Under the pieces are notes generated by a model. That model was not told the DNA's origin, ran no database searches, and saw nothing but the letters and a program-made list of their open reading frames with translations. From positions 105,867 through 137,996 of the forward strand of contig NZ_REGE01000005.1 of NCBI RefSeq assembly GCF_003688935.1: DNA of 32,130 nucleotides. The letters are read 5' to 3'. This document shows positions 3,935-32,130 of this stretch, piece after piece. The position numbers were made by a program, and so were the translations under genes. Source of the stretch: Corynebacterium macginleyi. Its GTDB lineage: Bacteria; Actinomycetota; Actinomycetes; Mycobacteriales; Mycobacteriaceae. Numbering within the stretch: position 1 is the first letter of the stretch; every line of letters starts with the position of its first letter.

Positions 3935-4336
3935 ACGCGGGATTCATGTCGTAGACTACGACATCCCGCTCTCAAAAGACTAGTCAATTGCTCGCGAAAG
4001 ACCAATTCTCGGTCCTACGAGAAACAACTCTTGCTGGTTAGTCACGCCTTTTCACTTCGAACGGAGCCGCCGGAACAATTCGGCTTAGCTCAAACGCGAA
4101 CCAAAATTCACATCGATGAAGTTGCGTCGCACGGTTTTCTACTTGAGCCAAGTGTCACAGGCATAGGACAGTATCAGTCGAACATGGCGTTCAATGCTGC
4201 GGCTGCAGCCGACGGTGGAGCATCAGCAGGAATGAATACCGTTCTCATCAGTCAAGCGACGAACCTGTTTGCTGGATGGCCTTCCGATATCTTGATTACT
4301 AAGCCCAGCAGTAGATTCGGGCTACCAAAACAAGGT
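3935..4336. other. Non-coding gap between tRNA and CRISPR array
   Basis: No supported gene. An open frame on the plus strand begins at 4031 and runs through the first repeats of the CRISPR array, so it is not a credible gene as it stands. Its upstream part has protein-like composition (an Ala/Gly-rich stretch near 4195-4230) and could be the decayed end of something. No degenerate CRISPR repeat is visible at the positions where the 61-base periodicity would continue leftwards. Confidence 0.4.
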
Positions 4337-4974
4337 GATTTATCCCCGCTCACGCGGGGATCACCTCTCTCATCATGGCCCGTGTTACCCCGCTTAGGGC
4401 TCATCCCCGCTCACGCGGGGAGCACGATGTCGGCGTTCCCGTATACGTCATCGCGGACGGCTCATCCCCGCTCACGCGGGGAGCACCTGGTTCTATTGCA
4501 GAGACTTTAAGCGATTAGCGGCTCATCCCCGCTCACGCGGGGAGCACGCTTCTACCTGCTCTAACCACTTCTTTCGAGCCGGCTCATCCCCGCTCACGCG
4601 GGGAGCACCAGTGCAGATAAGACTGAGTCGCGTTCTTTTGAGGCTCATCCCCGCTCACGCGGGGAGCACCCGTCGTCATTGCAGCTCCCCCTCTTTACCA
4701 TCGGCTCATCCCCGCTCACGCGGGGAGCACAAAGGAACACTATGGCAGACGCTCTATTTGAGGGGCTCATCCCCGCTCACGCGGGGAGCACTTGCCGCGG
4801 TGGCTGGTTTCGTCTCCGGCGTGCGGCTCATCCCCGCTCACGCGGGGAGCACGGCCTTTTTCAGGGCGTTTTCGTTCCAGTCGGCGGCTCATCCCCGCTC
4901 ACGCGGGGAGCACTGGAATTTGACGAAGGTATTTTCACCGCTCTGGGGCTCATCCCCGCTCACGCGGGGAGCAC
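4337..4974 (-). CRISPR. Type I-E CRISPR array, 11 repeats and 10 spacers
   Basis: Repeats of 28 bases recur every 61 bases, starting at 4337, 4398, 4459, 4520, 4581, 4642, 4703, 4764, 4825, 4886 and 4947. Every spacer is 33 bases. In transcript (minus-strand) orientation the repeat begins GTGC, has the hairpin core TCCCCGCGTGAGCGGGGAT and ends GAGCC, a classical I-E repeat cleaved by Cas6e at the base of the stem. Ten repeats are identical. The one at 4337 has four substitutions, which marks the old, leader-distal end; the newest spacer is therefore 4914-4946, next to the leader and cas2. Spacer targets cannot be named by eye. The first spacer base in transcript sense is G in six cases, C in three and T in one, so it is probably the PAM-derived 29th repeat base. 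Confidence 0.98.
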
Positions 4975-5065
4975 TCTTGCTGAACAGCAGAAATTCGAGC
5001 CTTAGGTCAATTCTACGTACAACTTGTAATTTAAGGAAGCTACTGCCGAAGCTCCGCGCGGCCTA
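4975..5065 (-). promoter_or_regulatory. CRISPR leader
   Basis: The 91 bases between the last perfect repeat and the cas2 stop codon are more AT-rich than their surroundings. They are expected to contain the array promoter and the spacer-integration signals. Position next to cas2 and opposite the degenerate repeat supports this. I could not pick out a convincing -10 or IHF-like site by eye. Confidence 0.7.
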
Positions 5066-5419
5066 CTACCTGCCCTTCTGTTTCTTATAAGAATTACGGT
5101 TACGTCGGGCTTGAGACCACCCAGTCCTTCGCGGTGCTTGCTTAAACTTAGCCGGCCGCCTCATCAAGGTAATCCCGTCGAAATCCGTGGGTTCCCAATG
5201 ATGTCGGTGAGTTTTGAACTCCATTCTCTGCTCATTCGCAGCTGAATGCACCATAAGTGCACGCCCATCTTTACAAAGCTCGGTTGTACGCTCCCAGAGC
5301 AAATCACGAATACGAGCAGAAGGACGTCCGACGAATACACCAGGGGTCAGCTCAATGAGCCACTTCGACAGATCGCCCCGTAGCCCAGCGGGACAAGCAG
5401 TAACAACCAGCACCATCAT
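5066..5419 (-). CDS. cas2: CRISPR adaptation protein Cas2 (type I-E)
   Basis: The 117-residue product starts MMVLVVTACPAGLRGDLSKW, typical of the Cas2e subfamily, where the ferredoxin-like fold opens with (M)xVxVxTxxPxxLRG. WLIELTPGVFVG and RIRDLLWE follow as in E. coli Cas2. Cas2 dimers bridge two Cas1 dimers in the spacer-integration complex. The ATG at 5419 overlaps the cas1 stop (ATGA), so translation is coupled; the second ATG at 5416 is an equal alternative. The C-terminal 25 residues are basic and Gln-rich (SQARRNRNSYKKQKGR), longer than in E. coli. It is the last gene of the cas operon and lies next to the leader. Confidence 0.95.
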   Translation of the reverse strand: MMVLVVTACPAGLRGDLSKWLIELTPGVFVGRPSARIRDLLWERTTELCKDGRALMVHSAANEQRMEFKTHRHHWEPTDFDGITLMRRPAKFKQAPRRTGWSQARRNRNSYKKQKGR

Positions 5420-6354
5420 GACAGCGTGTCCTCTTCTGCCCAGTTAAGACCGGAAGCAATGACTTCAAGTTCGCTCCACAGCATTAGCTCGGCGTCACTG
5501 ACAAGCTCGTTATCTGGTACATCAAAAAGTGCCTTAAGGTCTTGAACCATCCGCGGCATGAGGCGGCGTGAGACAACTTGATCCCGCACGAGACGACGCA
5601 CTTCCACGGAAGGATTACCCTGTTGTGCTGCGACAGCATCAAACGCTGCTGGGATAGAAATCTCAGCTTTGTATAGGTCAGCAATGTCGTAGACAAATGA
5701 CCTATCGGTGCCTGTATGTACTATTCCTAAGGCAGGAATGAAACCAAGCGCTGCAACGACACCGTGAGCAATTCCATATAGCGCAGCGCTACCTGCAGTC
5801 AGAGCTTGGTTAATTGGGTCAGAAGAATCGAAATCATTGGGATCGTAAGACCTCCGATTCCAATAGACTCCAGTACGCTGAGCTTCAGCCGCATAAATCC
5901 GCTTCATGCGTGCACCTTCGCGGCCACGCAGCTGGGATATCGTCAACTGAGAAACGTCTTCTCCTGGAAACCGCATGGCGTACATTCTGCGAGCCACATC
6001 TAAACGCTTCCGCTGGTGAGAAACTACCTGCGCATGAATTTCAGCCATACGGGACGATTTCGCCGGTGGCCGACCGTGCGCATAATACCGAACACCGCGC
6101 TCACCCACCCAAAGGGTGGTAACCCCGGCATCGCCAAGCAAGGCCATGCCCGCATAAGTAATCCTCGTCCCTGGACCAAGCAGCAGTGCCGCCAACTGCG
6201 TGGCTGGCACGTGTGCCACGCCGCGCTGGTCCGTTATCGTTAGAGAATTACCATCCCTATTAATCACGCAGCGCTCTGCGTAAAGAAAACTAATTCGGTC
6301 TCCCATCCGCGATAAAGCTTGTCGGGTGACAGGGACTTCACTCGGATTAGACAT
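5416..6354 (-). CDS. cas1: CRISPR integrase Cas1 (type I-E)
   Basis: From the ATG at 6354 the product has 312 residues, close to the usual ~305 for Cas1e. GDRISFLYAERCVINRDGNSL begins the N-terminal beta domain. The helical catalytic domain has NQALTAGSAALYGIAHGVV, and then GIVHTGTDRSFVYDIADLYK, which supplies the metal-binding His and Asp of Cas1. The enzyme cuts and joins protospacer DNA into the leader-end repeat. The frame is open further upstream to 6573, but that part overlaps cas6e in another frame and is not Cas1-like. The chosen ATG overlaps the cas6e stop as TGATG, the normal coupling in I-E operons. Confidence 0.96.
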   Translation of the reverse strand: MSNPSEVPVTRQALSRMGDRISFLYAERCVINRDGNSLTITDQRGVAHVPATQLAALLLGPGTRITYAGMALLGDAGVTTLWVGERGVRYYAHGRPPAKSSRMAEIHAQVVSHQRKRLDVARRMYAMRFPGEDVSQLTISQLRGREGARMKRIYAAEAQRTGVYWNRRSYDPNDFDSSDPINQALTAGSAALYGIAHGVVAALGFIPALGIVHTGTDRSFVYDIADLYKAEISIPAAFDAVAAQQGNPSVEVRRLVRDQVVSRRLMPRMVQDLKALFDVPDNELVSDAELMLWSELEVIASGLNWAEEDTLS

Positions 6355-7052
6355 CAGGACCCCATCGGTCGAGCTAAGGTCATCAGGCCGCAACCATAAC
6401 CACGAGCTCTTCCTATCCCATGAGTAAGGGTATGCCGTAGAGCCCCAGGGTCTTTGACCTCTAAAGCTCCGCGGTAACGGGCTGTGACGATACGTACACG
6501 CCTGTTGCCATTTCCTTTCCGGAAATCCAACGTTTTTCGCTCGATAATGGCGGGTTCTTCTTCCAACGACCACCGAGAACGCTCATCGTCGCTGACATCA
6601 TCGCCAGCCCGGGGGGCTAGTCCGAATCCGGCATTTTCTGCACGCCGATACAACCACCCTAACTGATGTTCCACAGACACGTGAGCCTTAACTTTGCCTC
6701 GCTTGCCTTCATTAGCTTGCGAATAAGTTGGGTTGGCTACCAGCTCAAAGAGCCATCTTTGCCCCTTGGTCAGCGAATTAAGCAGTCGGTCATACTGAAC
6801 CGATTGTGCCGGCCGTGTATCCCACCCTGCTTGTTCCACAATCACATGGTCGGTCGGCTTTTCCGGCCCCACGACGTAGAGCGAATGGTGATGCGCGCCC
6901 TCATCAAGGCGCCATAAAATGCGGCCAGACTCTTGTTCCACATCCGGTGGAAATGACGCGGCGACTGCAGCGTGCATTGCCTGTGGATTAGCAAGCAACT
7001 TTCGTCCTTGACGCCGCTGAGGATTGATGAGAATTTTGGTTAAAGTACTCAT
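6354..7052 (-). CDS. cas6e: CRISPR RNA endonuclease Cas6e (CasE)
   Basis: The 232-residue product begins MSTLTKILINPQRRQGRKLL, with His27 in the position of the catalytic histidine of E. coli Cas6e (His20). It ends with the glycine-rich loop HGIGRARGYGCGLMTLARP that contacts RNA in the second RRM-like fold. It cleaves pre-crRNA at the 3' base of the repeat hairpin and leaves the 8-base 5' handle. Its start overlaps the cas5 stop by four bases. The same enzyme should recognise the hairpins of the mini-array at 14411-14498, because the stems are conserved there. Confidence 0.94.
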   Translation of the reverse strand: MSTLTKILINPQRRQGRKLLANPQAMHAAVAASFPPDVEQESGRILWRLDEGAHHHSLYVVGPEKPTDHVIVEQAGWDTRPAQSVQYDRLLNSLTKGQRWLFELVANPTYSQANEGKRGKVKAHVSVEHQLGWLYRRAENAGFGLAPRAGDDVSDDERSRWSLEEEPAIIERKTLDFRKGNGNRRVRIVTARYRGALEVKDPGALRHTLTHGIGRARGYGCGLMTLARPMGS

Positions 7053-7765
7053 ACATTCATCACCGCCTCCAAAAACGGATCTGGCCGCCGCTCAGTGCTT
7101 TCCAGGGGGTTGCCCACAATAGCAAATTCCTTTTGCACCACGGTGCGCCATGAATACTTGCGGTGCTGCGGATCAAAAGACTTCGGTATATCCTGGCAAG
7201 CCACGCCAGTTTCTCCTGGGAGGGAGTCCCTGTAGATCGGCAACGATACTTCCCCACCACTTGATTTCATACATTCCTTAGTGGCGTGCCATGTGCTGTG
7301 CTCTTGTAAAGCCTTAACCGCAGTTTTTTCGACCACACCAAGCACCACATTGGGTGGAGCCGGGCACGAACGCCGGCCCAAATAGAGCGGAAACACCGGC
7401 TGGTTTAGATTCTGCGCAAAATTTTCGAGTTGTTCGCGGTCCTCACTCTCGATTGCCGCGACGAATGCGGCATCTGACAGGAAATAGCGGGTGATGAGCT
7501 TTGCGGACGCTTGCGGATCTTTTTGCCAGTTTTGCGCGGTCTGATAATCGCGCAATAGGCTACCTGATTGGTCGACGCGCACTGCAAACTTGAGGCCAGC
7601 CAAATCGGCCATATCTTCGTCACGCCTACGCCCTTCAGCTGCTGCAAGCATGCCAAGCACTCCTGACTTTGAGGGCAAGGACGAAGTGGCACGCGTAGCG
7701 TAGCGAGATTCCGTTCCCCAAGACTGCATCGGTCCTTTAAGCAGCAACAACAATGATGCTGTCAT
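7049..7765 (-). CDS. cas5: Cascade subunit Cas5 (CasD, type I-E)
   Basis: The 238-residue product starts MTASLLLLLKGPMQSWGTES, followed by RYATRATSSLPSKSGVLGML. This is the signature N-terminus of Cas5e, which binds the crRNA 5' handle at the foot of Cascade. The later part includes YLGRRSCPAPPNVVLGV, which is also typical. It lies 13 bases downstream of cas7 with a ribosome-binding site in AGTAGGAGGC, and overlaps cas6e by ATGA. Confidence 0.95.
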   Translation of the reverse strand: MTASLLLLLKGPMQSWGTESRYATRATSSLPSKSGVLGMLAAAEGRRRDEDMADLAGLKFAVRVDQSGSLLRDYQTAQNWQKDPQASAKLITRYFLSDAAFVAAIESEDREQLENFAQNLNQPVFPLYLGRRSCPAPPNVVLGVVEKTAVKALQEHSTWHATKECMKSSGGEVSLPIYRDSLPGETGVACQDIPKSFDPQHRKYSWRTVVQKEFAIVGNPLESTERRPDPFLEAVMNV

Positions 7766-7778
7766 CGTTTCAAGCCTC

Positions 7779-8921
7779 CTACTTCGAAAGCGCGGAAGTC
7801 AACCGCTGCGAAAGCTCTGGAAGGGTCACTTCTTCAGCGATTTGTGCGAATGCCTGGCGGGCCTCGCTCAACCCAACCACAAAAGCTGCCTTAGGCCGCA
7901 GCCCGTAGTTTTCTTCAAACTCGGCTTCTTCTTTCGCCAATGCATCGGCACCAGCAACGCGCAAGCTCTGACCGGTGGTCGGCTCTACTGCTTCTTCGAA
8001 GGCCGTAACCAGGCTAACCGGACGGGTATCGCGAACCGCAACATAGATGAGTTCAGGCATTGTGTGATTGGCAAAGGTATTTATTTTCCCCGTGGGCATT
8101 GACTTGATGAATGCATCGACGAAGTTCACTGCAGCTTGCTTTGCGTTTTCTGCCGAGTCAAGGTTTTGCGTCAGTCCATCTAGGTTTACTGTGGCATAGC
8201 GGTACAAGGTAGAAGACATCATTTGTACAGTGCCAATCATGCCTGCACCTGTTTCTTCGCCTTCCTCAGCTAAGTCATCGACCGCGGTGAAATAGTCAAA
8301 TTCAGGCGCGCTGGCATGGATTCCCAGCGCATGCGCAACCTGCACTGCAGCATCGACGTTATAAGCTGCATCATCGGCAACCATGCGCCCAAACAACGCC
8401 ACATCTACCGAGTGTTGGGTATCGAGGATCTCCAGGGCATCTTTCTTCTTAATCTTTTCACCGTCGGCCGAAACAATCGCCTCAGCGGCACGTTCAATCT
8501 GGTGTGGGCTCAAGAACAACAGGTATTTGGTCTGCGGATACTGCGCTGCGGCTAGTTCTTCTTCGGTGGTTTCCTCGGAATCTTTCAGCGCCTTTATTCG
8601 CTTCGCATCCACTTCCGTCTTAATTCCTGCAGCTTTGAAAAGCTCAGCGACTTCCTTTTGAGCTCGCTCTGCATTCCATCCGGCGTGTTGTTGAACCTTA
8701 CGTGCAATCTTCTCTGGAAGCCGCTTCGATCGGTCTCCCACAGATTCGGCGTCGATTTCAGACTCAAAGTACTTGCGGATTGCACGCTTCCATGCTTGTG
8801 AAGAGACTCGCTGACGTGGTACGCCACCGTAAACGGCAGACTTAGGCGCCCCAGTGTCGTCACGGTTGATCAGGGAAGGCGGAAGGGTCTGCAGAGCGTG
8901 GATATCGATGGTCAAAGCCAT
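7779..8921 (-). CDS. cas7: Cascade backbone subunit Cas7 (CasC, type I-E)
   Basis: The 380-residue product opens MALTIDIHALQTLPPSLINR, then DDTGAPKSAVYGGVPRQRVSSQAWKRA, the conserved start of Cas7e. Six copies form the crRNA-binding filament, and their thumbs flip out every sixth crRNA base. LFGRMVADDAAYNVDAAVQVAHAL and TVNLDGLTQNL are further family motifs. A 35-base gap separates it from cse2. A ribosome-binding site (AAAGGAATTTTC) precedes the ATG at 8921. Confidence 0.96.
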   Translation of the reverse strand: MALTIDIHALQTLPPSLINRDDTGAPKSAVYGGVPRQRVSSQAWKRAIRKYFESEIDAESVGDRSKRLPEKIARKVQQHAGWNAERAQKEVAELFKAAGIKTEVDAKRIKALKDSEETTEEELAAAQYPQTKYLLFLSPHQIERAAEAIVSADGEKIKKKDALEILDTQHSVDVALFGRMVADDAAYNVDAAVQVAHALGIHASAPEFDYFTAVDDLAEEGEETGAGMIGTVQMMSSTLYRYATVNLDGLTQNLDSAENAKQAAVNFVDAFIKSMPTGKINTFANHTMPELIYVAVRDTRPVSLVTAFEEAVEPTTGQSLRVAGADALAKEEAEFEENYGLRPKAAFVVGLSEARQAFAQIAEEVTLPELSQRLTSALSK

Positions 8922-8956
8922 TGCGAAAATTCCTTTCTAAAATTTGAAAACTGATT

Positions 8957-9628
8957 TTAAGAAGTCGGTTCGGTCTGAGCAGATGTATAAGAACCAAATG
9001 CGAAGTCACGTGACCATTTCAATAGCACGCCTTGCCGCTGCGCATACGCTTTTTGAGTAGCATTTTTGTTGCCGAGAATTCTCAGGTCCTGTGCAAATGC
9101 ACCGTAGTCAAACCCCAAATTTTCCCCGCGCAATAGCGTTACCAAGGAACGAATATGTATGAGGCGTGAACCCTCATCGAGGGCTACGAGCATGGCATCA
9201 AACCGCGGTTTCGTGGATTGCGACTGACTGTGCGCATAGAAACGACCGCAGGCCCGTGCAAAGCTTTGACCTCTAATATGTGCTTCGCTGCTAGCGCTTT
9301 GTAGATGGATACCTAGCATTGTTAGGGCTTGAAAAGCTGCGAGTTCTGATGCGGATGGTGCCGCGCCCTTTCCCATCTCTTGTTCGCTCAGTGCCGGCTC
9401 CAATAAGAGGAGAACCTCCTCTAGCGCCACGGGATGTTGTTCAAGACGGACCCCAGAATACTTTCGTAACTGGGCTAGGACTGCACGTGCTCGCGCTTGT
9501 TCATTGTGGTGTGGCGAATGCAAATAATCATTCTGCAGCGCCTCTGCGGTACGTGCCACGGAGTTTCGCAAACGCGGACCTGTGTACTCCGCAGCATTTC
9601 CTGCCTGCGGATGACTGGTGTCATGCAT
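8957..9628 (-). CDS. cse2: Cascade small subunit Cse2 (CasB, Cas11)
   Basis: A 223-residue helical protein whose size and place between cse1 and cas7 identify it as Cse2. Family segments include FQALTMLGIHLQS and, near the C-terminus, LLRGENLGFDYGAFAQDLRILGNKNATQKAYAQRQ. The dimer holds the displaced strand along the Cascade belly. I chose the ATG at 9628 because GGAAGG lies about ten bases before it; a GTG at 9637 also fits but lies inside that SD. Either start overlaps the end of cse1, which implies coupled translation. Confidence 0.92.
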   Translation of the reverse strand: MHDTSHPQAGNAAEYTGPRLRNSVARTAEALQNDYLHSPHHNEQARARAVLAQLRKYSGVRLEQHPVALEEVLLLLEPALSEQEMGKGAAPSASELAAFQALTMLGIHLQSASSEAHIRGQSFARACGRFYAHSQSQSTKPRFDAMLVALDEGSRLIHIRSLVTLLRGENLGFDYGAFAQDLRILGNKNATQKAYAQRQGVLLKWSRDFAFGSYTSAQTEPTS

Positions 9629-11366
9629 GGGCAACACCTTCCTTCATAGATGAGCTAGGATTCTGAGTGCGCATGGACTTGCCTGTTAACGGCAGGTTCT
9701 TATCAAAACGCCGCTGTAGCTGCTGAAAAAGAGACCCGGCTGAGACGATTCGGCCCTTTCCGTCTTCGCCTGCATCTACTTCCCTGCCGATGATCGCCCT
9801 CATGCCAGCGCCACGCAGCAGTTCCATTGCGTGGGAGACAGCTACTATCCGGACCCGTTCTTGCCAGTTGATTTGGGCGCTGTCTGCATTTTCAGCGGAA
9901 ATGTTCTTCATCCAGGCAATAAAATCTGGCTCCAACTGGGCATAAAACCTGTCCTTAGACTTAATACCAAATTCATAATCATCGCCCGCGGCTACCCGTA
10001 GTTGACCTTCAAACCAGCCCAAGCTCACGGCTGTTTCGTAGGTCTTTTGGGCGGCGGTACGGACAGTATTACGCGCTTGTCTGCCACGATAATCTTCGCG
10101 CAATACCACTAACGGCAGCCCGATCGTGGTGCTAAAAGTGGTGGCTATTGAAGATTCCTGCGGTCCGTACTCCATCGAAACCAAAGCAATATCAAAGACA
10201 CCTTGGTTCAAGTACCCATCACCGTCAAGCGCAGCGAGATTGCTGAGATTGGCTGGTCGCTTCGGAGCTTTTGCCTTTTTCTGGTCGAAGCCTGGATCGT
10301 CTTCCACGGCAACCAAAGCATCAAGTGCACGCCACATGGTCTGAGTGGAATCGTAGGGACGCGCATAGTAAGCGTCTTGGCCAGCCTTCGACTGGTTAGG
10401 GCTATACCGATACGGCGTCATAGGATCGTTCATGACATTTTTTCCCGCATCCGGAATGCGATCACCATTCGCTACGAGAACGCGAGTAACCTGGCCTTTT
10501 TCAGTCACCAGGCGCACTCGCCGTGCCTGCCAAGTTGCCAAATCAGCCGCACCTTGGGGCACAGCACCAAGTTTGTCATCCGAGCCACGGCGCTGCGCAG
10601 CTGTATCCGGTTCTCTTTCCCATACCGGCTTATCCAGCTCAATTGGGTTAGTTCCCTGCTTCGTCATCACAGCTGTCATAGGAGTATTTAGCAAAAGTGT
10701 TTCTAGGAGGCCTTCAGTTCCAAGCACCAAAGTTCCACCCGTTCGGCCGGTCCAACCTGTGCCGATGGGATAACCCCTACTACCCTTTACGCGCGGGTCT
10801 CCTACTGCGCCGGTTTTGATACCGGAATAATCATAAGCTTGCAGGTGAAGCAACCATCGGGCAGCCTCATCTAGAGGAATTGCCCGCCGACCCTCAGCCG
10901 TACGCATCGTGAAATGTTCATCAGCGGCTTCTGGAACTATATAGGAAATCGGTCGAGTCTCATTTTTCTGCGAGTGAAGGTCCGCTACTTGCATGAAGGG
11001 GATGGTGTCAGAGAGTAAGTCGAATCGGTCTTTAAAGGCATCAAGATAATCTAAAACAACTTGGTCCCGCTTCGTCCCGCATAATTCTTCACGTTTTTCC
11101 GCGAACCAAACGCCCCAATCAAACTTGGCGCGTTTCCGCCTTCCGTCTCCTGCTTCCGCCAATTCTTGCGCATGAGCGCGCCAAAAAATAGCCAATAATA
11201 GTCTTATGACTGCATAGTCCTGGGTCGGTGAATCGCCCACAATTTTGCGGGCATCACCCTGTCCAGAAAATATGTCCCAAATGCTCAATGCCTTGCGATT
11301 ATCCGCACTGTCTGTGCACAGAATCCATGGCTTATCGAGCAGGTTGAAGGTTTCTTTATCAGTCAT
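9621..11366 (-). CDS. cse1: Cascade large subunit Cse1 (CasA, Cas8e)
   Basis: The 581-residue product begins MTDKETFNLLDKPWILC, the standard Cse1 opening ((F)NLLdepWIpv). Family segments follow: FMQVADLHSQKNETRPISYI, GAVGDPRVKGSRGYPIGTGWTG with the glycine loop, and SMEYGPQESSIATTFSTTIGLPLV. Cse1 reads the PAM and recruits Cas3. It is preceded by a strong ribosome-binding site (AAGGAGG) and by a 98-base gap after cas3, so cse1 could be the first gene of its own transcript as well as being read through from cas3. No anti-CRISPR-like gene sits in that gap. Confidence 0.95.
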   Translation of the reverse strand: MTDKETFNLLDKPWILCTDSADNRKALSIWDIFSGQGDARKIVGDSPTQDYAVIRLLLAIFWRAHAQELAEAGDGRRKRAKFDWGVWFAEKREELCGTKRDQVVLDYLDAFKDRFDLLSDTIPFMQVADLHSQKNETRPISYIVPEAADEHFTMRTAEGRRAIPLDEAARWLLHLQAYDYSGIKTGAVGDPRVKGSRGYPIGTGWTGRTGGTLVLGTEGLLETLLLNTPMTAVMTKQGTNPIELDKPVWEREPDTAAQRRGSDDKLGAVPQGAADLATWQARRVRLVTEKGQVTRVLVANGDRIPDAGKNVMNDPMTPYRYSPNQSKAGQDAYYARPYDSTQTMWRALDALVAVEDDPGFDQKKAKAPKRPANLSNLAALDGDGYLNQGVFDIALVSMEYGPQESSIATTFSTTIGLPLVVLREDYRGRQARNTVRTAAQKTYETAVSLGWFEGQLRVAAGDDYEFGIKSKDRFYAQLEPDFIAWMKNISAENADSAQINWQERVRIVAVSHAMELLRGAGMRAIIGREVDAGEDGKGRIVSAGSLFQQLQRRFDKNLPLTGKSMRTQNPSSSMKEGVAHA

Positions 11367-11464: not shown

Positions 11465-14245
11465 TCACTCACGTCCATCACTCATAATTTCGATTCCGAG
11501 CTGGCTCGTATACCGCAGAACAAAGCGTCCTACCTGCGTCTCACCTCTTTCATCTAACGGCAATGCCAGTTGTCCCCGTAGTAAGTAATGTGCACCCCAC
11601 TCGACGGGGGTTGCCCCTTCGAGGTGATCTACTACCGCATCAAAGTCCGCGTCGTAACGGGTCATTCGCACAGGCAGCCGTACCGTACTAGACGCAAGAT
11701 GAAAAGCCAGCTTATACGGAATATCAGCAGCCTCAATGACTTCTTCATCCCAGCCCCACGGGCGATAGCCGTAATCAGTCTTGATTATGGGGATCACCTC
11801 AACGCTGGGCTCTGCGTCACGTACTTGAGCTGTGCCTTTGATCTCGGCATCATCTGCGGAATCGTCCTGCAGCCGTACAAATAGCGCATCGAGGCCATTG
11901 GTACTCCATGGATCTGGCAATCGGAACGTCGAGGACGCTGCATGCGCTGTCGATTCTTCAAAATCACGCGTCCCAATAGCTTCTTCCCACGATTCCTTCC
12001 ACGCCTCTGGAGGCCTAAAGTTTCGGTCGTACGCGGCCGTTACAAGCGGAGCGATGTCATCTGGACGGCGAATCTTATTTGGCAAGACGGCATAGGTTGA
12101 TAGCAATATCGCGCGACCGTAAATGGCCTCGGCCCCTGATTCAAATTCCGGGATTGGTGAGGAAGTGTCTATCCCGCGAATGACAACTTTTGGCTCGCGC
12201 AGTTTTTCGGGTCGATCGTTGGAGGGACGAGCGTGACGGTGCAGCCTCCCGATGCGCTGGATAAGCAAATCCATCGGTGCGATATCAGTGATCAGGGCGT
12301 CGGCATCAATATCCAAGCTCTGTTCCGCTACTTGAGTAGCCACGACAATTTTTTGTTTCGGCCGTCCTGCTCCCCGGTGGGCGTCCGGGCCAAGTTGGCG
12401 CCGTAATGAATCTTCTTTTTCTACGCGTTCCCAAGCCACAAATCCCGCATGATGCAGCTCCACGCAATCACCATAGCTTTCGGCGAGTTCCAAAAATGCG
12501 GCCTGAGCTCGTGCAATAGTATTGCAGATAATAAGAACACATCCGCCCTCCACGAGCCATTCTTTGAGAAGTTCATGCAGTGAATCTCCGTCTTCTGCAA
12601 GGAAATTAATGTTAGCTTCAAGATCCGTTGGGGATGCCGGGACGTTTAGAGAACGGATTTTGTCTTCCGTCGCCACCGTGATTAATGGGTAGCCAGTTGG
12701 CTCTTCCTCTGGCCATTGACCGTCGGAGTACGCGCTGACCAATGCGCGCCGCTTATCCGTCGGCAACGTGGCGGACATGACGATTACGCTAGCACCATAA
12801 AACCCCAACCATTCGATGGCGCTCTGGAGGTAATCGGAAGAATACACATCAAAGGAATGAACCTCATCAAAAATTACTACTTTGCCTGCCAAGCCGACGT
12901 GCCTCAGCATGGAAAACCGCTGTTGTAGTGCCATCATGAGCACTTGGTCAACGGTACCCACCACGAAATTGGAAAGAATGCCGAGCCGCCGTCCAGACAT
13001 CCACTGCGATGCAATAACGTTGCCGCCGTCTTCTTCATAACGGTTGATTCCCGTAAATTTTAAATCCGTATAAGGCTTGGCCAATGCATTTTTGGAATGC
13101 GCGAGGTACATCGATCGAACCGAATCTGTCGTTATGTTTCGACTCCATTCGATGGTCCTTTGCAATAGGCCATTCGCGGTGGCCATGGTCGGGGCGGCAA
13201 AAAAGATTCCTTGCGCCCCACTACGCGCCGCAAGCACTTCCGCTGCTGCTAAGGCGGCTTCGGTTTTTCCTACGCCTGTTTCAGCCTCCAGGACTATGAG
13301 CGCTGGCTCATCGATCTCTCTAGCAACCTCCACCATTTCCTGCTGTACTTGTCGCGCTTTGAACTCAGCCGGCCACCCAAACGATTGCCGGAATTGCTCG
13401 TCGATGTCTAGATGCAATCGAGTTTCCGGTTCCCAAGGTGAGGTCAAGTCAATGAGCTCTGCAGCTTTTTTCACTCGGTCTAGTTGAGTTCCCTCCACAC
13501 GTAAGCCGAAAGCCTTTTCATTAGAAGCAATCCAGTCCGCCATAACTACTAAACCGGTAAGTATTTGCGCAGCGGCGGGTGAGACTTTCGGCAGCTTGGC
13601 AAACACCTGCGCAAGCTCATTTTCCCCACAGAGTTGCGCCATGGCATCAAGAAGTTCACCATGAACAATTCGCCACGCCGAAGGGTAATCCTGAATCAAT
13701 TCTCGGACCGCCTTATTCGGACCACTTGCGGCACCATGATGCGCATTGACAACCGCGGACACAGAGTTAGCTTTCGGCAGGGGAAATCCCCGCTGCTCAA
13801 GCCAGATGGCTAAAATTTCACCAGAGGCAATACCGTGCGGAAGCTTGGACATATTCGCCTCTGAGGCACTCAAATCGATATCCAACCCCACGTCGCTAAC
13901 GGCATGGACCAAATGCGCAACCTCACTGCGGTCAAGAAGGAGCCGCTGAAAAGTTTTAATCCCTTTACCAACATCATGGGACCCAGCAAGGAAGACGTAG
14001 AGAACTTCGACATCCAGCTCTGAAACGCGCAACTCGGCTTTCAGAAACTCTCTAACGGAACGGGAAAGCCAAGAGTTATACACCAGGGATGCAGCACAAG
14101 CGGAATCAACCATATGTTGCGGCAGGTTGAGATGGTCTACACCATCACCCGATTTCGCCCACAAGCTCCGTGCCTGCTGGCTGCGTTGACTGGCCCAACC
14201 ATCTGCACGAGTGCAAAAATCCACTGTCTTCGCTGGCAATTTCAT
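11465..14245 (-). CDS. cas3: CRISPR helicase-nuclease Cas3 (type I-E)
   Basis: The 926-residue product has an N-terminal HD nuclease domain (His44; His90-Asp91 in FLAGSHDVGKG; HAHHG-like at 168-171; Asp237). A superfamily 2 helicase follows: Walker A LEAETGVGKTEAA at about 319-331, motif II DEVH at 460-463, motif III SATLP at 491-495, and motif VI QRIGRLHRH. A Cas3 C-terminal domain ends the protein. Cas3 is recruited by Cascade after R-loop formation and unwinds and shreds the target. The ATG at 14245 has GGAG upstream. The gene heads the cas cluster. An extended -10 (TGCTAATTT, minus strand 14337-14329) lies inside the sequence matched by the mini-array spacer, so cas3 is probably repressed by that RNA. 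Confidence 0.96.
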   Translation of the reverse strand: MKLPAKTVDFCTRADGWASQRSQQARSLWAKSGDGVDHLNLPQHMVDSACAASLVYNSWLSRSVREFLKAELRVSELDVEVLYVFLAGSHDVGKGIKTFQRLLLDRSEVAHLVHAVSDVGLDIDLSASEANMSKLPHGIASGEILAIWLEQRGFPLPKANSVSAVVNAHHGAASGPNKAVRELIQDYPSAWRIVHGELLDAMAQLCGENELAQVFAKLPKVSPAAAQILTGLVVMADWIASNEKAFGLRVEGTQLDRVKKAAELIDLTSPWEPETRLHLDIDEQFRQSFGWPAEFKARQVQQEMVEVAREIDEPALIVLEAETGVGKTEAALAAAEVLAARSGAQGIFFAAPTMATANGLLQRTIEWSRNITTDSVRSMYLAHSKNALAKPYTDLKFTGINRYEEDGGNVIASQWMSGRRLGILSNFVVGTVDQVLMMALQQRFSMLRHVGLAGKVVIFDEVHSFDVYSSDYLQSAIEWLGFYGASVIVMSATLPTDKRRALVSAYSDGQWPEEEPTGYPLITVATEDKIRSLNVPASPTDLEANINFLAEDGDSLHELLKEWLVEGGCVLIICNTIARAQAAFLELAESYGDCVELHHAGFVAWERVEKEDSLRRQLGPDAHRGAGRPKQKIVVATQVAEQSLDIDADALITDIAPMDLLIQRIGRLHRHARPSNDRPEKLREPKVVIRGIDTSSPIPEFESGAEAIYGRAILLSTYAVLPNKIRRPDDIAPLVTAAYDRNFRPPEAWKESWEEAIGTRDFEESTAHAASSTFRLPDPWSTNGLDALFVRLQDDSADDAEIKGTAQVRDAEPSVEVIPIIKTDYGYRPWGWDEEVIEAADIPYKLAFHLASSTVRLPVRMTRYDADFDAVVDHLEGATPVEWGAHYLLRGQLALPLDERGETQVGRFVLRYTSQLGIEIMSDGRE

Positions 14246-14312
14246 GGTTCTATCTCCACTACAGGCTCACCTAGTCCACCCTTTTATGGCGAATTTGGGT
14301 TATTAACTACTG

Positions 14313-14347
14313 ATTCAAGTGTACACCTAAATTAGCACAAACATGTT
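14313..14347 (-). promoter_or_regulatory. Candidate cas3 promoter and target of the mini-array spacer
   Basis: On the minus strand TGCTAATTT (14337-14329) is an extended -10 element, placing transcription start near 14322 and a leader of about 75 bases before cas3. The same stretch is matched by the mini-array spacer. After a 5' AAC (14347-14345) the minus strand agrees with spacer positions 1-5, 7-11 and 13-16, and then only partly. Positions 6 and 12, the only early mismatches, are bases that Cascade flips out of the hybrid. The match would put Cascade over the -10 and the start site. Confidence 0.75.
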
Positions 14348-14405
14348 GAAAATTTGAAATCACCCAAACCTCCACCACTTTTGAGGTAAGATTACAGGAG
14401 GCAAA

Positions 14406-14435
14406 ATGCCAAACTCCCAGCTAATGCTGGGATGA
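14406..14435 (+). other. Nine-codon mini-ORF with a perfect Shine-Dalgarno, overlapping the first mini-array repeat
   Basis: AGGAGG (14396-14401) lies four bases before an ATG at 14406. The frame reads MPNSQLMLG and stops with TGA inside the first degenerate repeat. A -10-like TAAGAT (14387-14392) sits just upstream, so an RNA starting near 14399 would carry both. A consensus SD before so short a frame is unusual. It may be a relic of a lost gene or a small toxin-like translation trap as in CreT-type elements; that reading is speculative. Confidence 0.3.
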
Positions 14436-14498
14436 GCCCATGTTAGTGCTCATTTGAATAGTCAATTGGCTAGTTCCCCGCGACAGCGGGGATTATTT
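14411..14498 (+). CRISPR. Degenerate two-repeat mini-CRISPR (putative cas-regulating crRNA)
   Basis: Repeat 1 (14411-14438) matches the array repeat at 19 of 28 bases. Its stem carries a compensatory change (C-G to A-T) and its last ten bases, GGGATGAGCC, are identical, so the 5' handle left by Cas6e is preserved. Repeat 2 (14471-14498) also matches at 19 of 28, with the whole stem TCCCCGCG..AGCGGGGAT intact and the handle lost. The 32 bases between them (14439-14470) equal one PAM-derived base plus a 31-base spacer. Repeat 2 is followed by a T-run (TTATTTTT), so its hairpin can also act as terminator. It is divergent from cas3. The spacer partly matches the cas3 promoter region. By analogy with crRNA-like regulators of CRISPR loci (CreR/CreA types), it should guide Cascade to repress, not cut. 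Confidence 0.85.
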
Positions 14499-14781
14499 TT
14501 CCCTGTAATTAAAGGCTGCTTTTGCCTTCGCCGTCTTTCGGCAGCTTGAGCTTGCTAGTCAATCAAAGAGCTACCCCAAGGTACTTCCACCAGAAGGAGC
14601 ACCCACTCCCCCAGCGCGGCTTGAGTAGGTCTGCGGTACGCGCTTGGACATACCACCTTGTCCGAGCGCGTCCTTCCACTTCTTTGGTCGCTGAACTCGA
14701 ACGGCACCGGTACCAATTCTGGGTACAATCGGTGTCTGCACTCACCGCTAGTGTGAAAATTAATTGAGAAAAGGAGCAATC
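14499..14781. other. Gap between mini-array and ohr
   Basis: No supported gene. Several short overlapping frames exist on both strands but none has a ribosome-binding site or recognisable product. TACAAT at 14724-14729 could be the -10 of the ohr promoter; no good -35 is seen at the right distance. Confidence 0.35.
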
Positions 14782-15326: not shown

Positions 15327-16796
15327 ATGTCTGTTGAAGCTCGCGCCCTTTCACTGCGGCGGTTATTACATGATTCGGCTGCCGTCCGGCTGCTGGCCGC
15401 CGATAATGCTCCGGTGATTTTGGCGCTGATTGCTGAGTACTTCCCCCGTGGTACTCGGGCACGGTCGGCGGCAGAGGTATACGAGCTCATGGTCACAGAT
15501 TTCGAGGTACTTGCCAGTGAGTTCCCCATGCCGCGCACGCCGCAAAACTATTGCAATGACTGGGTGAAAGCTGGTTGGCTTGTCAGAAAGTCTGGTAGGA
15601 GCTCACGCGGCGAAACCTTAGAGCCGAGCGAGGAAGCTCTGTCTGCGCTCGAGGCCGTTGAACGGTGGGAAACACCGGTTACCACGGTCACGGCGTCCCG
15701 GGTGGAATCTATCAGCTCGGCACTGCAGCGTTTGGCGCGGGATACCAACGAGGATATTTCGAGTCGCGTCGCCAGCTTAGAGGCAGAACGAGACCGCATT
15801 GACCGCGAAATTGACAAGGCTTATTTAGGGCAGTTTGAAAAGCTAACCGCGGCACAGACGGAGGAGCGCGTCCACGACGTGCTGAATATGGCTATGGCTG
15901 TCCCGAGCGATTTCGCCAGAGTGCGCCATGAACTCGAAGCCCTCAATCACCGGTTACGCCGCCAACTACTGGATCCAGAAGGCTACCGCGGTGACGTGCT
16001 TGAGGAAATTTTCAGCGGCGTGGACCACATCGCCGAATCGGATGCCGGCCGTAGCTTTCGGGGATTCTATTCCTACCTCATGGACAGAGAACGCAGTGCG
16101 TGGATGGACCAGTGGATTAACCAGGTTTTAGAAAGCGACGTTGGCCATGAGCTGGCACCAGAGAGCCGGCAGCAGCTACGGAATCTCTTTCGCGATATGG
16201 AAGAAACGAGCTTCGAGGTCAATCAAACAATGACTGGCCTTGCGCGCAGCTTGCGCAACTATGTCTCTTCGGAACAATTTGCAGAAGATCGGCGCATGAT
16301 TGAACTACTGCGTGAAGCACGGGGCATGGCCATTGATGCCGCGCAGGCATCAGAGCTGAAAGCCTTTCACCGCATGGAAACACCCCTGCAGCGCATCGGC
16401 ATGCCCATTCACTCGGTCTCGCGCATCCACTTAGCCAACCCGGGACGCGAAGTCGTGGAGGAAACACCGGAAGCCTTCCAGCCGCGCCAGGAAAACGCGG
16501 GGGCATTGTATGAGTTAGTGCGCGAATCAGAAATTGACTTTGAGGAATTGCATGCGGCGATTCGCGGGGCTGTCGGCAAGGCTGGTCCATGCACGATTGG
16601 CCAGGTAATGCAGGAGTACCCGCCCACGCAGGGTCTCGCCAGCGTCGTGGGTTTGGTGCACATTGCGTACCAGCACCCACTGCCGGGTTTGCATGATGCT
16701 GACGAAAAAGTCACGTGGACCGAAGGAGATGGGACCATTCGCGCGGCGTATATCCCTACTATGTATTTCGATAGCACCACTGTTAAGGAGTTATAG
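15327..16796 (+). CDS. jetA: Wadjet anti-plasmid protein JetA (MksF, DUF3375)
   Basis: The 489-residue product is the kleisin-like subunit of a Wadjet system. It opens MSVEARALSLRRLLHDSAAVRLLAADNAPVILALI, the usual DUF3375 start. Helical, Glu/Arg-rich middle and winged-helix ends follow, as expected for a MukF/kleisin analogue that bridges the two ATPase heads. It is the first gene of a tight four-gene operon; its TAG overlaps the GTG of jetB by one base. An open frame extends upstream to 15243, but the ATG at 15327 fits both the family N-terminus and a leaderless promoter. Wadjet complexes extrude loops of circular DNA and cut small plasmids. The protein was identified by context and N-terminal pattern. 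Confidence 0.92.
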   Translation: MSVEARALSLRRLLHDSAAVRLLAADNAPVILALIAEYFPRGTRARSAAEVYELMVTDFEVLASEFPMPRTPQNYCNDWVKAGWLVRKSGRSSRGETLEPSEEALSALEAVERWETPVTTVTASRVESISSALQRLARDTNEDISSRVASLEAERDRIDREIDKAYLGQFEKLTAAQTEERVHDVLNMAMAVPSDFARVRHELEALNHRLRRQLLDPEGYRGDVLEEIFSGVDHIAESDAGRSFRGFYSYLMDRERSAWMDQWINQVLESDVGHELAPESRQQLRNLFRDMEETSFEVNQTMTGLARSLRNYVSSEQFAEDRRMIELLREARGMAIDAAQASELKAFHRMETPLQRIGMPIHSVSRIHLANPGREVVEETPEAFQPRQENAGALYELVRESEIDFEELHAAIRGAVGKAGPCTIGQVMQEYPPTQGLASVVGLVHIAYQHPLPGLHDADEKVTWTEGDGTIRAAYIPTMYFDSTTVKEL

Positions 16797-17446
16797 TGAC
16801 CGCTACTGATAATCATCGCGTCGATTCCGCCCATGAGCCCCCGCTGTGGGAAAGCGATAAAGGAACGCTAACCTATAACTCGCGCCGCGCGTTAGTGCAG
16901 CTTTTGAAGGGGCCGCTGGTGCGTGCACACAAGGAACCTGTCTTATGGTCCGCCATTATCTCGGACGAAGACAATCTGCGGGCCCGCCTCCATGAGGTAT
17001 TTCTTGAGCTGGTGGTCGATGAAGGAGAAGGGTTTGCCTTTACCCGGATGGTAGAAGAGGAGACGCTGCCTATTCCACAGGTGCTGCGCACGGATAAGCT
17101 CAAGCACATCGATACCGCCATCCTCCTGAACCTACGCCAGGAACTTGGCTTGGCGCTACCCGGTGAACGTGTGATCGTAGACATAGAAGATCTGCGGGAG
17201 GGCATTGGATACGTCCGCGCGGTTGATTACCGCGATGAAGCCGGGTTCAATAACCGGTTCAATGCGGCGATTAAACGGATCCGGAATGAGTATTCACTGC
17301 TGAGCGCAACTGAGACGGAAGGGCGTTTCGAGGTATCACCCGTCTTGCGGCAGCTTTTCGATGCCGCCACGGTTACCGCCATTCGGAATGAGTACGCCCG
17401 GCTAGCAGGTGCCGAGGATGACCAGGAGAATGCTTCCGATGCCTAA
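16796..17446 (+). CDS. jetB: Wadjet protein JetB (MksE, DUF4194)
   Basis: The 216-residue product matches the DUF4194/MukE-like subunit in size and position. RRALVQLLKGPLVRAHKEPVLW and LNLRQELGLALPGERVIVDIEDL are typical; the C-terminal part is a winged-helix-like domain (YSLLSATETEGRFEVSPVLRQLFD). Translation starts at GTG 16796 with AAGGAG a few bases earlier, and the start overlaps the jetA stop by one base. In the complex, MksE/JetB binds the kleisin near the ATPase heads. Its end overlaps jetC by eight bases. Confidence 0.92.
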   Translation: MTATDNHRVDSAHEPPLWESDKGTLTYNSRRALVQLLKGPLVRAHKEPVLWSAIISDEDNLRARLHEVFLELVVDEGEGFAFTRMVEEETLPIPQVLRTDKLKHIDTAILLNLRQELGLALPGERVIVDIEDLREGIGYVRAVDYRDEAGFNNRFNAAIKRIRNEYSLLSATETEGRFEVSPVLRQLFDAATVTAIRNEYARLAGAEDDQENASDA

Positions 17447-20400
17447 TCTCTATCCCGGCCAATTCCGTATCAGCCGTATCCAGCTCATTAACTGGGGTAC
17501 TTTTCACGGCTACTTTTCCATACCGGTAGCCCGCAAGGGCTTCCTCATTACCGGTGGATCCGGTTCAGGCAAATCCACGCTGCTTGACGCGATGTCGGCT
17601 GTGTTGGTTCCGCAGAAGGATCTCAAGTTCAACGCGGCATCACAGCAAGACCTCGGGCGACATAATGGGCGCAACCTCGTCTCCTATATTCGCGGAGCGT
17701 GGCGGCAGCAGGAAAATGCGCACACGGGTGAAATTGCCCCGGAGTACCTGCGTGAGGGCGCAACGAACTCGGTGGTGGCGTTGACCTATGATAATGGGGC
17801 TGGAACGCAGCACACCCTCATTGCCATCTTCCGCCTCAACGGTGGTGAAAATTCGGTGGGCCAGATTAAAAGGCTCTATGGGGTTGTGCGGGGAGACGAG
17901 GACATCGATAAGCTCAGCCCTCTGCTCACCCGCAGCCTAGATACCCGCAAGATTAAAGCCATGTATAAGGGGCCTGGCGCTTCATTTACGCCGACGTACA
18001 ACACGTTTGCGGATCGATTCCGCAAACGCCTAGGCATCAAGAGTGAGCAGGGCCAAATCCTGCTGCACCGCACGCAGTCCGCCAAGTCCTTATCCAGCCT
18101 GGACCAGCTTTTTCGGGACTATATGCTAGATACACCGTCTACCTTCGAGCGGGCGGAGAAAGCAGTGGAGCAGTTTGAAGATCTGCGCCAAGCATACCTG
18201 CGAGTAGAGGATGTCAAGGCCCAGATTGAGACCCTGGCTCCCCTGCCCCAATTGCACTCCCAGCGCACCTGCGCAGAGGCGGATAAACACAAAGCTGAGG
18301 CGATGAATGAGGCGCTACCGGCGGTGCGCGCCCGCTTGGTGGCAGAAGAACTGGACTATCGCATCCGCGTGCTGACTGCCCAACAGGCAGAGGCACAATC
18401 TGCAGCCGAGGCACTCGAAGCGGAGGTCGAGCACCTTGACGATGCCGAGCGTCGCGCCGCAGTAGCGGTCTCCCAGCTCAGTGCCGGCGAGCTGGCCGCA
18501 CTAGAAGCCAAAATTGAAACCGCGGAGAAAGAAATTGAGCACCGCTCTAAAGAGTTCCAACACCTGGCCACTGCCGCTGAACAATGGACTGATCACTTTG
18601 AGCTCAACCCACACGGCTTCGCCGAACTGCAGGCAAATGCCCGTCTGCGCATCGCGGACTTTGAGGCTGACTCGGCCCAGCTTGCTGAGCAGCAGCAAGA
18701 AGCCGGTGTTGCCGCTCGCGATGCTGCGACAGCCTATGCATGCCTAGAAAGTGAACTGCGCTCCTTTAGCTCGCGGCGTACCAATATCGATAAGGCCCTC
18801 GTAGAGCTGCGCACCCAACTCGCCCAAGATACTGGCTACGCAGAATCGGAGCTTCCTTTCGCTGGAGAGCTCCTAGATATCGCCCCGCAGCAGGCGGAGT
18901 GGGAACCGGTGATCCAAAAACTGCTGCACACATTCGCCGCTACCCTGCTTGTTCCAGAAACCGCACGGGAAGCCATTAACCAGTGGGTCAATTCTCGCAA
19001 CGTGGGCACACGGCTCGAATACCGCACTATCCCGGAGTTCGCTCCGGCGCCTGCCCCCGCGCGCAGCCCGCACCAACTCATCCACAAATTGGAGTTTCAG
19101 GACCACCCCATGGCGCAGTGGGTGCGCCACCATATTTCAAGCCGTTTTAACTACGAATGTGTCAACTCGGTGGCCGCCCTCGAACAGGTAACCAAGACCC
19201 CGGCTGTCACGCACGATGGCCTGGAAAGCCGACCCAAGGACAAGGATGGCTCAACGCGATTTATCAAGGATGATCGCACGCGCTTTAATGGCACGCGGTG
19301 GTACCGAGTAGGTTCTACTAATACCGCCAAGATTGAGCTCCTGCGTTCCCAATTGGGCGAAGCGAAGGCCAGTGCTCGCGCTAGGGCAAAACAGGTCCAC
19401 GAGCTCAACCGGAAGATGGATATCCTGCGCACACAACGCGATAAAGCACAACGTGTACTAGAGACCAAGTTTCAGGATATTGATACCGCATCCGCTGAGG
19501 CGCGCAAGCGCGATTTGCAAGAACAATATGATTCTTTGGCTTCCTCCCCAGAGGCGCAGGCCCTAGCCAAAGCGCACGAGCAGGCGAGAGAAAAGCTTAC
19601 TGCTGCCCGCACCCAACTAAACGAAGCCCAAAAACATCTCGGTAATGTGGAGGGCGAGCTGAACCGTTCCTCCCAACGGCGCCGCAGCATCGGAACTGTG
19701 CCCATGGTGGCGGATCAGGGCATCGCTGCGGCAGTCGAAGAGGCTCTGCACAAAGGCAGAAGAAAACTCACCATCGATGACATCGATGCCCGGCGCGATG
19801 AGGTGCAAGCCAGCCTGCAAGAAACCGCACGCACGGCAGCGCGCCGCATCGAGGAGACGAATGCCAAGATTGTCTCCGTCCTCCACAAGTACCTATCGCA
19901 GTGGCCCGCGGAAGCCGCTGATTTGGAGCCGCAGGCCAGCTTCGCTGGCGAGGGCATGGAGAAGCTCAAGTTCCTGCGCGCGGACCGCCTGGCCGATTTT
20001 CGCGCTAAGTTTTTGGAGCTGCTTAATGGCACGACGGTGCAGAACCTATCGCACCTCGCCTCGTCACTTCGCCATGCCCGTAGCGATATCGAGCAGCGCA
20101 TGGAGTTTATTAATAAGTCTTTGCAGCGCACGCCCTTCAACGGCGACCGCACCCTACGGATCGATGTGAAGGATGCCCGGGGTCAGGTGGTGCAAGACTT
20201 CCAGCGGGATCTCGATGCCGCAACGTCCCATAGCCTGGCGGAAATTAGTGCCGATGATCCCGAAGCTGCGGTAGTGCGCTATCACGCCCTGGATAAGATT
20301 CTCAGCCGCTTGGGCTCGTCTGAGGCGGAGGACATTCGGTGGCGCAACCTGGTTCTCGATACGCGCAAGCATGTCAGCTTCATCGGCCGTGAGTGCTATC

Positions 20401-29500: not shown

Positions 29501-29606
29501 GTAGGTCCGACCGGAATAGGCAAGACTACATTGCCCGCGCCATCGGCATCACCGCGTGCCACGCTGGATATTCCGTGGCCTACTACCAGCAGGAGTGCGC
29601 GGCCAG
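29501..29606 (+). pseudogene. Frameshifted IstB (IS21 ATP-binding protein) fragment
   Basis: One frame has VGPTGIGKTT (Walker A) from 29501; another continues as IARAIGITACHAGYSVAYY. Joined, they give the core of IstB, the AAA+ helper of IS21 transposases. The shift lies near 29525-29532. The preceding 29300-29500 shows no intact frame. There is neither istA nor the end of istB. Confidence 0.6.
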
Positions 29607-29833
29607 TCTTGACGGGGCTATATTCCACTGCCGATCACGGCAGTGTGTACACCTCACAGGCCTTCAGAAACTACTACTCTTCACTAGAGGTACGCCAGTC
29701 CATTGGCGCGGTAGTAACGAGTGGCGATAACGCCCTAGCAGAATCATTTAACGCAAAGCTCAAGCAAGAAGTACTGCAAGATCGGACGGTCTTTGAAGCC
29801 GGGACTCCAGCTATACTGACCAAAGCAGCATAG
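29607..29833 (+). pseudogene. Truncated IS3-family transposase (OrfB) fragment
   Basis: The frame reads TADHGSVYTSQAFRNYYSSL, then EVRQSIGAV, and NALAESFNAKLKQEVLQDR, the DDE-domain end of IS3 OrfB (DHGxxYxSxxF ... ESFNxxLKxE). The catalytic Asp of DHG and the last Glu of AESF are present, but the sequence leaves the family after DRTVFEA. The usual CRRxxxxWxxxYNxxRxHS end is missing, and no N-terminal part exists. It is joined directly to the IstB fragment, so one element inserted into the other or both were deleted. Confidence 0.75.
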
Positions 29834-31958: not shown

Positions 31959-32039
31959 AGGCTTTCCCGCTAACCACTTCCCGCGCAACTCCTGAACTAA
32001 CGTTGTTATGTCCATGAGGTTTTTGGACTTGGAGTCTAG

Positions 32040-32130
32040 CTACTTTTTGGACTTGGAGTCTAGGGACTTTGTGGACGTGGAGTCTCCCCGCTTTTTGGAC
32101 GGGGAGTCCACTGAGTTTTTGTACTGGTGC
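32040..32130 (-). CDS. C-terminus of an unknown gene with 8-residue Ser/Lys repeats
   Basis: Only the last 29 codons lie in the window. The frame reads HQYKNSVDSPSKK, then RGDSTSTK and SLDSKSKK before TAG (32042-32040). The DNA is a 24-base tandem repeat, three full copies plus degenerate ends, that encodes the octamer xxDSxSxK. Such basic Ser-rich repeats form flexible cytoplasmic tails in corynebacterial membrane and cell-envelope proteins. The rest of the gene is outside, so its identity cannot be given. Confidence 0.6.
   Translation of the reverse strand, partial: HQYKNSVDSPSKKRGDSTSTKSLDSKSKK

What the first reader, a model, noticed from the sequence alone, without database searches (positions are those of the whole stretch)
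14313..14347. The mini-array spacer matches the cas3 promoter with mismatches only at the bases Cascade flips out
Taking 14439 as the PAM-derived base, spacer positions 1-5, 7-11 and 13-16 equal the minus strand from 14344 leftwards; positions 6 and 12 differ, and identity falls off after 16. In type I-E Cascade every sixth base is not paired, so the first 16 bases are effectively a perfect seed. The flanking AAC agrees with an AA(G/C) PAM implied by the array. The match covers an extended -10, TGCTAATTT. Short PAM-proximal complementarity should allow binding without Cas3 cleavage, so Cascade would repress its own locus.
Basis: partly seen in the sequence, partly recalled or inferred. Interest (0 to 1): 0.95.

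Follow-up and report, generated by a model that had tools for sequence, protein, structure and literature searches.

The report
Self-silencing CRISPR guide beside cas3
Next to the cas3 gene of this Corynebacterium lies a tiny CRISPR unit whose guide matches the DNA just upstream of that same gene, and in related species guide and target have changed in step, so it likely lets the CRISPR machinery turn down its own production.

Summary
The mini-array guide (14440-14470, + strand) equals the minus strand from 14344 at 14 of its first 16 positions; only positions 6 and 12 differ; the flank is AAC. The PAM-plus-seed pattern occurs once in the 2.4-Mb genome.

Of 87 Corynebacterium cas3 loci examined, 57 carry a mini-array whose guide matches its own cas3 upstream region beside an AA PAM. 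Own against swapped regions: 31 of 44 versus 1 of 1760. Over 44 distinct guides, positions 6 and 12 match at chance (9/44, 10/44) while positions 5, 7, 11, 13 match 164/176.

It files with CreR, cas-regulating RNAs that reviews report for types I-B, I-E and V-A: a new member of a known kind. Two features I did not see described: guides fall into two length classes, about 20 and about 32 nt, two Cas7 footprints apart; and the second repeat often runs into T-rich DNA, like a terminator. Expression and repression are untested.

The parts
14411..14438 (+). Degenerate repeat A of the mini-array; keeps the 5' handle ATGAGCC and a 7-bp hairpin
   Evidence: 19/28 identical to the canonical repeat; fold z -3.5
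14439..14439 (+). Eighth handle base (C), the position that is PAM-derived in a canonical array
   Evidence: position by alignment to the canonical repeat
14440..14470 (+). Guide, 31 nt; first 16 match the target except 6 and 12
14471..14498 (+). Degenerate repeat B; its hairpin (14475-14492) runs into TTATTTTT and looks like a terminator
   Evidence: 19/28 to canonical; terminator-like site, 1 found against 0.7 expected by chance
14314..14344 (-). Target site (protospacer) upstream of cas3; the matching part is 14329-14344
   Evidence: single occurrence in the genome
14345..14347 (-). PAM, AAC
14349..14356 (-). A+T-rich block just upstream of the PAM, a candidate -10 region (inferred)
   Evidence: A+T 0.81-0.82 over 32 aligned upstream regions; no sigma-70 consensus site
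11465..14245 (-). cas3, the gene downstream of the target
   Evidence: cas3 helicase and HD domain models above cut-off
5066..11366 (-). cse1, cse2, cas7, cas5, cas6e, cas1e, cas2e
   Evidence: each above its NCBIfam cut-off
4336..4978 (-). Canonical CRISPR array, repeat GTGCTCCCCGCGTGAGCGGGGATGAGCC, period 61

Best explanation
The mini-array at 14411-14498 is predicted to encode a CreR-type guide RNA that would load into the type I-E Cascade and, by pairing through its first 16 bases with an AAC-flanked site 69-99 bp upstream of cas3, likely block transcription of cas3; guide and site are identical at 14 of those 16 positions and have changed together in relatives. Shown here: the repeats, the match, the flank, its uniqueness in the genome, the covariation in the genus, and the chance-level matching at positions 6 and 12. 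Inferred: transcription of the mini-array, cutting by Cas6e, loading into Cascade, an R-loop that stops at about 16 bp without licensing Cas3, and exclusion of RNA polymerase. The expected result is negative feedback, eased when ordinary crRNAs compete for Cascade or an anti-CRISPR disables it, as reviews describe for CreR.
For: Match and PAM, single occurrence in the genome. Strict scan of 60 loci: handle in 44; own-region scores out of 14 were 10 in 2, 11 in 7, 12 in 14, 13 in 16, 14 in 5; the PAM, not scored, was AA in 41 of the 42 scoring 11 or more; swapped regions reached 12 in 22 of 1678. With an AA PAM and an unbroken run of 12 or more: own 31/44, swapped 1/1760. 57 of 87 loci in all. 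In five near relatives, guide and target positions 2 and 5 change together. Position 6 and 12: 9/44 and 10/44; neighbours 164/176, Fisher p 4e-33; re-finding targets without the tested positions agrees. Reviews report CreR in type I-E. Cascade aimed at promoters represses in E. coli (PMC12235044, passages).
Against: In E. coli, Cascade sites with short seed matches were transcriptionally inert, and repression was said to drop greatly with 6 PAM-distal mismatches (PMC5904413, passages). No sigma-70-type promoter was found in 14200-14780 for cas3 or the mini-array. 30 of 87 loci did not enter the count: no such mini-array found, or dropped, or too weak (L070). L039 keeps a target-like site but no mini-array was found. 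No expression data exist here.
Confidence: 0.85

Rival explanations
1. Inert binding: the RNA is made and Cascade visits the site, but the short match does not change transcription; the site is kept for another reason, such as storing idle Cascade.
For: Short-seed Cascade sites in E. coli were transcriptionally inert.
Against: In the 44 strictly found loci the site mostly lies within about 130 bp of the cas3 start beside an A+T-rich block, where blocking polymerase is the simplest effect; CreR is reported to repress in type I-E.
Confidence: 0.06
2. CreTA-like pair: the guide is an antitoxin RNA that represses a small toxin gene between the target and cas3.
For: Same anatomy: degenerate mini-array and partial match to a nearby upstream region.
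Against: The 99-bp leader between target and cas3 holds no open frame of note (translation), and in relatives the target lies as little as 23 bp from the predicted cas3 start, leaving no room. A very short RNA toxin in the window itself is not excluded.
Confidence: 0.04
3. Decaying immune or self-targeting array: an old array remnant whose spacer happens to match the locus.
For: The repeats are degenerate.
Against: Guides differ between species yet match their own region (31/44 against 1/1760); repeat A keeps a stem; no convincing phage or plasmid match to the guide (best E 0.3 and 0.9).
Confidence: 0.03

Closest known systems
CreR (cas-regulating RNAs) of types I-B, I-E and V-A, as described in reviews PMC13131331, PMC12948488, PMC12737573 (passages); original paper recalled, not held
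   Same: Mini-CRISPR near cas genes; partial complementarity to the cas upstream region; predicted Cascade-dependent autorepression
   Different: Nothing at sequence level that excludes membership; expression and repression not tested here. The two guide-length classes and the terminator-like second repeat were not described in the passages I read
CreTA (RNA toxin-antitoxin pair guarding CRISPR-Cas; PMC12948488 and PMC12737573 passages)
   Same: crRNA-like RNA guides Cascade to a promoter by partial pairing
   Different: Here the gene downstream of the target is cas3; no toxin gene seen
Engineered short-guide repression with type I-B Cascade (PMC10989794 abstract; PMC10551041 passages)
   Same: Guides of at most 24-26 nt repress without Cas3 cleavage
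   Different: Engineered and type I-B; here natural guides of about 20 nt occur in type I-E relatives, while the window's own guide is 31 nt
Off-target seed binding of E. coli Cascade (PMC5904413 passages)
   Same: AA PAM, short seed match, position 6 less important
   Different: Reported inert for transcription, and position 6 matched in 45% of sites there; here matches are conserved with the site, and position 6 matches in 9 of 44

Membership tests
CreR | Degenerate mini-CRISPR close to cas genes | tested here: met
   two repeats 19/28 identical to canonical, one guide, upstream of cas3
CreR | Partial PAM-proximal match of the guide to its own cas upstream region, with a PAM | tested here: met
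   in the window; across the genus
CreR | crRNA-like RNA is transcribed and processed | not testable with these tools
   No expression data; only repeat hairpins predicted
CreR | Effector-dependent repression of cas genes | not testable with these tools
   Needs a reporter assay
CreR | Generally not coupled to a toxin gene | tested here: met
   No open frame of note between target and cas3; a very short RNA toxin is not excluded
CreTA | Toxin gene under the targeted promoter | tested here: not met
   cas3 is the gene downstream of the target; leader translation
Canonical type I-E array | Near-identical repeats with spacers from mobile elements | tested here: not met
   Repeats 19/28 to canonical; no convincing phage or plasmid match

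The most novel reading that the evidence does not exclude
Actinobacterial type I-E systems carry a dedicated repressor form of Cascade whose guide is shortened in quantal steps: guides of about 20 nt, two Cas7 footprints shorter than 32, build a four-Cas7 mini-Cascade that binds the cas3 start region but cannot license Cas3, with the second repeat fused to a transcription terminator. The 31-32-nt class, to which the window belongs, reaches the same end by keeping only about 11-16 positions of match.
Probability: 0.35. Interest if true: 0.8.

Novelty: new member of a known kind. Interest (0 to 1): 0.62.

Why it matters
It turns a sequence guess into a testable feedback loop, and offers a natural experiment: 44 distinct guide-target pairs read out Cascade's pairing rules (five kept, one free, five kept, one free, a fading match to about 16, then chance). 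It bears on a real tension: E. coli work found short-seed binding inert for transcription, yet here short matches are conserved together with their guides. The two guide-length classes would, if confirmed, suggest that effector size is tuned to separate repression from cleavage.

Tried and rejected
Rejected: CreTA (no toxin gene seen, little room in relatives), decaying immune array (covariation), chance (swapped control). Selection for mismatch at 6 and 12: match rates equal chance (p 0.60 and 0.86).

Limits of the counts. 103 of 242 held Corynebacterium genomes had a cas3 match. I examined 87: 60 fetched and 27 more (L152-L158, L159-L178). The 16 left out are mostly weak matches, plus G086 at a contig end, G051 and G015. 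Some genomes are near twins (G050 and G782 give identical scores). In one search, 13 of 27 genus loci were flagged and I kept 11 (dropped L164 and L169: no repeat-like sequence). Outside the genus 57 loci were scanned (56, one; those searches gave loci only for their best matches); 15 were flagged and I kept 8 (dropped L097, L101, L114, L116, L120, L122, L147: no repeat-like hairpin, or canonical repeats). These keeps are by judgement; shuffled upstream regions gave a flag in 9 of 171 (outside) and 4 of 81 (genus) trials. Only one best handle per locus was counted; some loci had a second handle-like stretch without a match. L070 was left out of the 57 (9 nt, AAT). The relaxed scans required an AA PAM; the strict scan did not. 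Cas3 start codons were chosen by script and are unsure in places (L075-L077). Guide length was measurable in 40 of 44 distinct guides. The Cas3 tree used 57 of 60 loci, with a quick method and some long branches.

Led nowhere: nine literature searches. Their listings showed no paper on CreR in Corynebacterium or on natural 20-nt type I-E guides, but most subscription papers are not held. In the passages seen of the C. striatum type I-E paper (PMC9944170) no such element was mentioned.

Full report
What is there. The window holds a complete type I-E locus on the minus strand: cas3 (11465-14245), cse1, cse2, cas7, cas5, cas6e, cas1e and cas2e. Each passes an NCBIfam cut-off, cas3 through its helicase and HD domain models rather than the full-length model. 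The canonical array has repeat GTGCTCCCCGCGTGAGCGGGGATGAGCC at period 61. Upstream of cas3, on the plus strand and pointing away from it, are two degenerate repeats 60 nt apart with a 31-nt guide between them. Repeat A keeps the handle ATGAGCC and a 7-bp stem with one base pair exchanged. Repeat B keeps its stem and runs into TTATTTTT; it is the one terminator-like site found in 14200-14780, where 0.7 is expected by chance. No sigma-70-type promoter site was found there. The nearest named relatives are Corynebacterium sp. KPL1814 and MSK130 and an uncultured bin, with Cas3 93% identical.

The match. The guide's first 16 bases equal the minus strand from 14344 at 14 positions; 6 and 12 differ; the flank is AAC. 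The PAM-plus-seed pattern occurs once in the genome. The guide has no convincing phage or plasmid match: best E 0.3 (two Streptococcus prophage records) and 0.9.

Is it more than chance? I asked whether relatives with other guides match their own cas3 upstream region. In 60 Corynebacterium loci a handle outside the canonical array was found in 44 by sequence alone. Each guide was compared with its own upstream region, leaving positions 6 and 12 and the PAM out of the score. Scores out of 14 were 10 in 2 loci, 11 in 7, 12 in 14, 13 in 16 and 14 in 5; unrelated swapped regions reached 12 in 22 of 1678. Of the 42 scoring 11 or more, 41 lie beside AA (AAC 34, AAG 3, AAT 3, AAA 1) and one beside AGC. 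With AA required and an unbroken run of 12 or more (sixth bases ignored): own 31/44, swapped 1/1760; at 9 or more, 38/44 against 1/1760. A relaxed scan added 3 loci and 27 further loci added 11: 57 of 87. Outside the genus 8 of 57 loci looked alike, by judgement.

Covariation close to home. In five loci whose Cas3 N-terminal 315 residues are 91-100% identical (L031-L034, L152), guide positions 2 and 5 read T/T, C/C, C/C, T/C, T/T, and target positions 2 and 5 read the same. Target position 6 differs in the window alone, while guide position 6 is the same in all five. In L082, a near twin of L081, repeat A, guide and target are missing while a repeat-B-like hairpin remains.

The Cascade footprint. 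Over 44 distinct guides (36 from the genus, 8 from outside) match counts at positions 1-16 are 44, 44, 42, 44, 42, 9, 44, 43, 40, 41, 38, 10, 40, 31, 30, 25; positions 17-24 give 9-15 of 44, near chance. Positions 6 and 12 do not differ from 25% (p 0.60, 0.86); positions 5, 7, 11 and 13 match 164 of 176 (Fisher p 4e-33). Because the scoring ignored 6 and 12, I re-found targets without the positions under test: position 6 then matched in 5/20 and 6/25, position 12 in 7/25, against 18/20 at position 5 and 21/25 at position 13. That every sixth base does not pair in E. coli Cascade is from PMC5904413 and PMC12871591 (passages). So the window's two mismatches look like free drift at unpaired bases.

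Two guide lengths. Measured between hairpins and calibrated on canonical arrays (2316 of 2385 spacers are 32 nt), mini-array guides are about 20 or about 32 nt. In the genus, 55 of 57 loci could be measured: 34 at 19-20.5 and 21 at 31-32. Of 44 distinct guides 40 could be measured: 24 at 19-21 and 16 at 31-33, none between. On the Cas3 tree the class changes at least 4 times. The gap of 12 equals two six-base Cas7 footprints (footprint size recalled). Short guides are said to give type I-E complexes with fewer subunits, without evidence that these repress (statement inside PMC10551041); in type I-B they repress without cleavage. In type I-F1 only full-length R-loops trigger Cas2/3, and that abstract says type I-E is less restricted. 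Behind the repeat-B hairpin, 12-nt tails hold 5.2 T on average over 41 loci, against 2.2 in the first 12 nt of canonical spacers.

How it likely works. The mini-array would be transcribed, cut by Cas6e and loaded into Cascade; Cascade would find AAC at 14347-14345, open about 16 bp, stop, and keep RNA polymerase off the cas3 start region without calling Cas3. Over 32 aligned upstream regions an A+T-rich block (0.81-0.82) lies 5 to 12 bases upstream of the site; I infer that the -10 lies there and that the R-loop covers the start site. All of this is inferred. Against it stands the E. coli report that short-seed sites were transcriptionally inert. Whether cse1 and the genes after it are also controlled is open: 98 bp separate cas3 from cse1.

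Results against. In 13 of the first 60 loci no mini-array was found by either scan, and L070 has only 9 matching bases beside AAT. L039 has a target-like site but no mini-array was found upstream, and no second copy of the site in the 18 kb searched.

Relation to what is known. Reviews state that CreRs mediate autorepression in types I-B, I-E and V-A through partial promoter complementarity (PMC13131331, passage), respond to crRNA abundance and to anti-CRISPRs (PMC12948488 and PMC12737573, passages). The original paper is recalled (Cell Host and Microbe 2023) and was not held. The window's element meets the sequence-level features; expression and repression could not be tested. Hence: a new member of a known kind.

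Noticed in passing
15327-21927: A Wadjet system, JetA-JetB-JetC-JetD of the first subtype by PADLOC models, lies on the plus strand next to the CRISPR locus, separated from it by an Ohr-type peroxiredoxin gene.
   Followed up: partly
L087, L088, L089: Relatives with a different repeat end (ATGTTCC) carry the mini-array in the opposite direction, toward cas3, but the guide still equals the cas3 sense strand beside AAC or AAT.
   Followed up: partly
L082 upstream of cas3: A near twin of L081 in which repeat A, guide and target are all missing.
   Followed up: partly
L039, about 60 bp upstream of cas3: A target-like site (AAC then TTGCTAAG) resembling that of L035-L038, with no mini-array found.
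   Followed up: partly
32020-32115: Four imperfect tandem copies of a 24-nt unit at the window end.
   Followed up: no
29531-29833: Short open frame that looks by eye like a transposase remnant (not searched).
   Followed up: no
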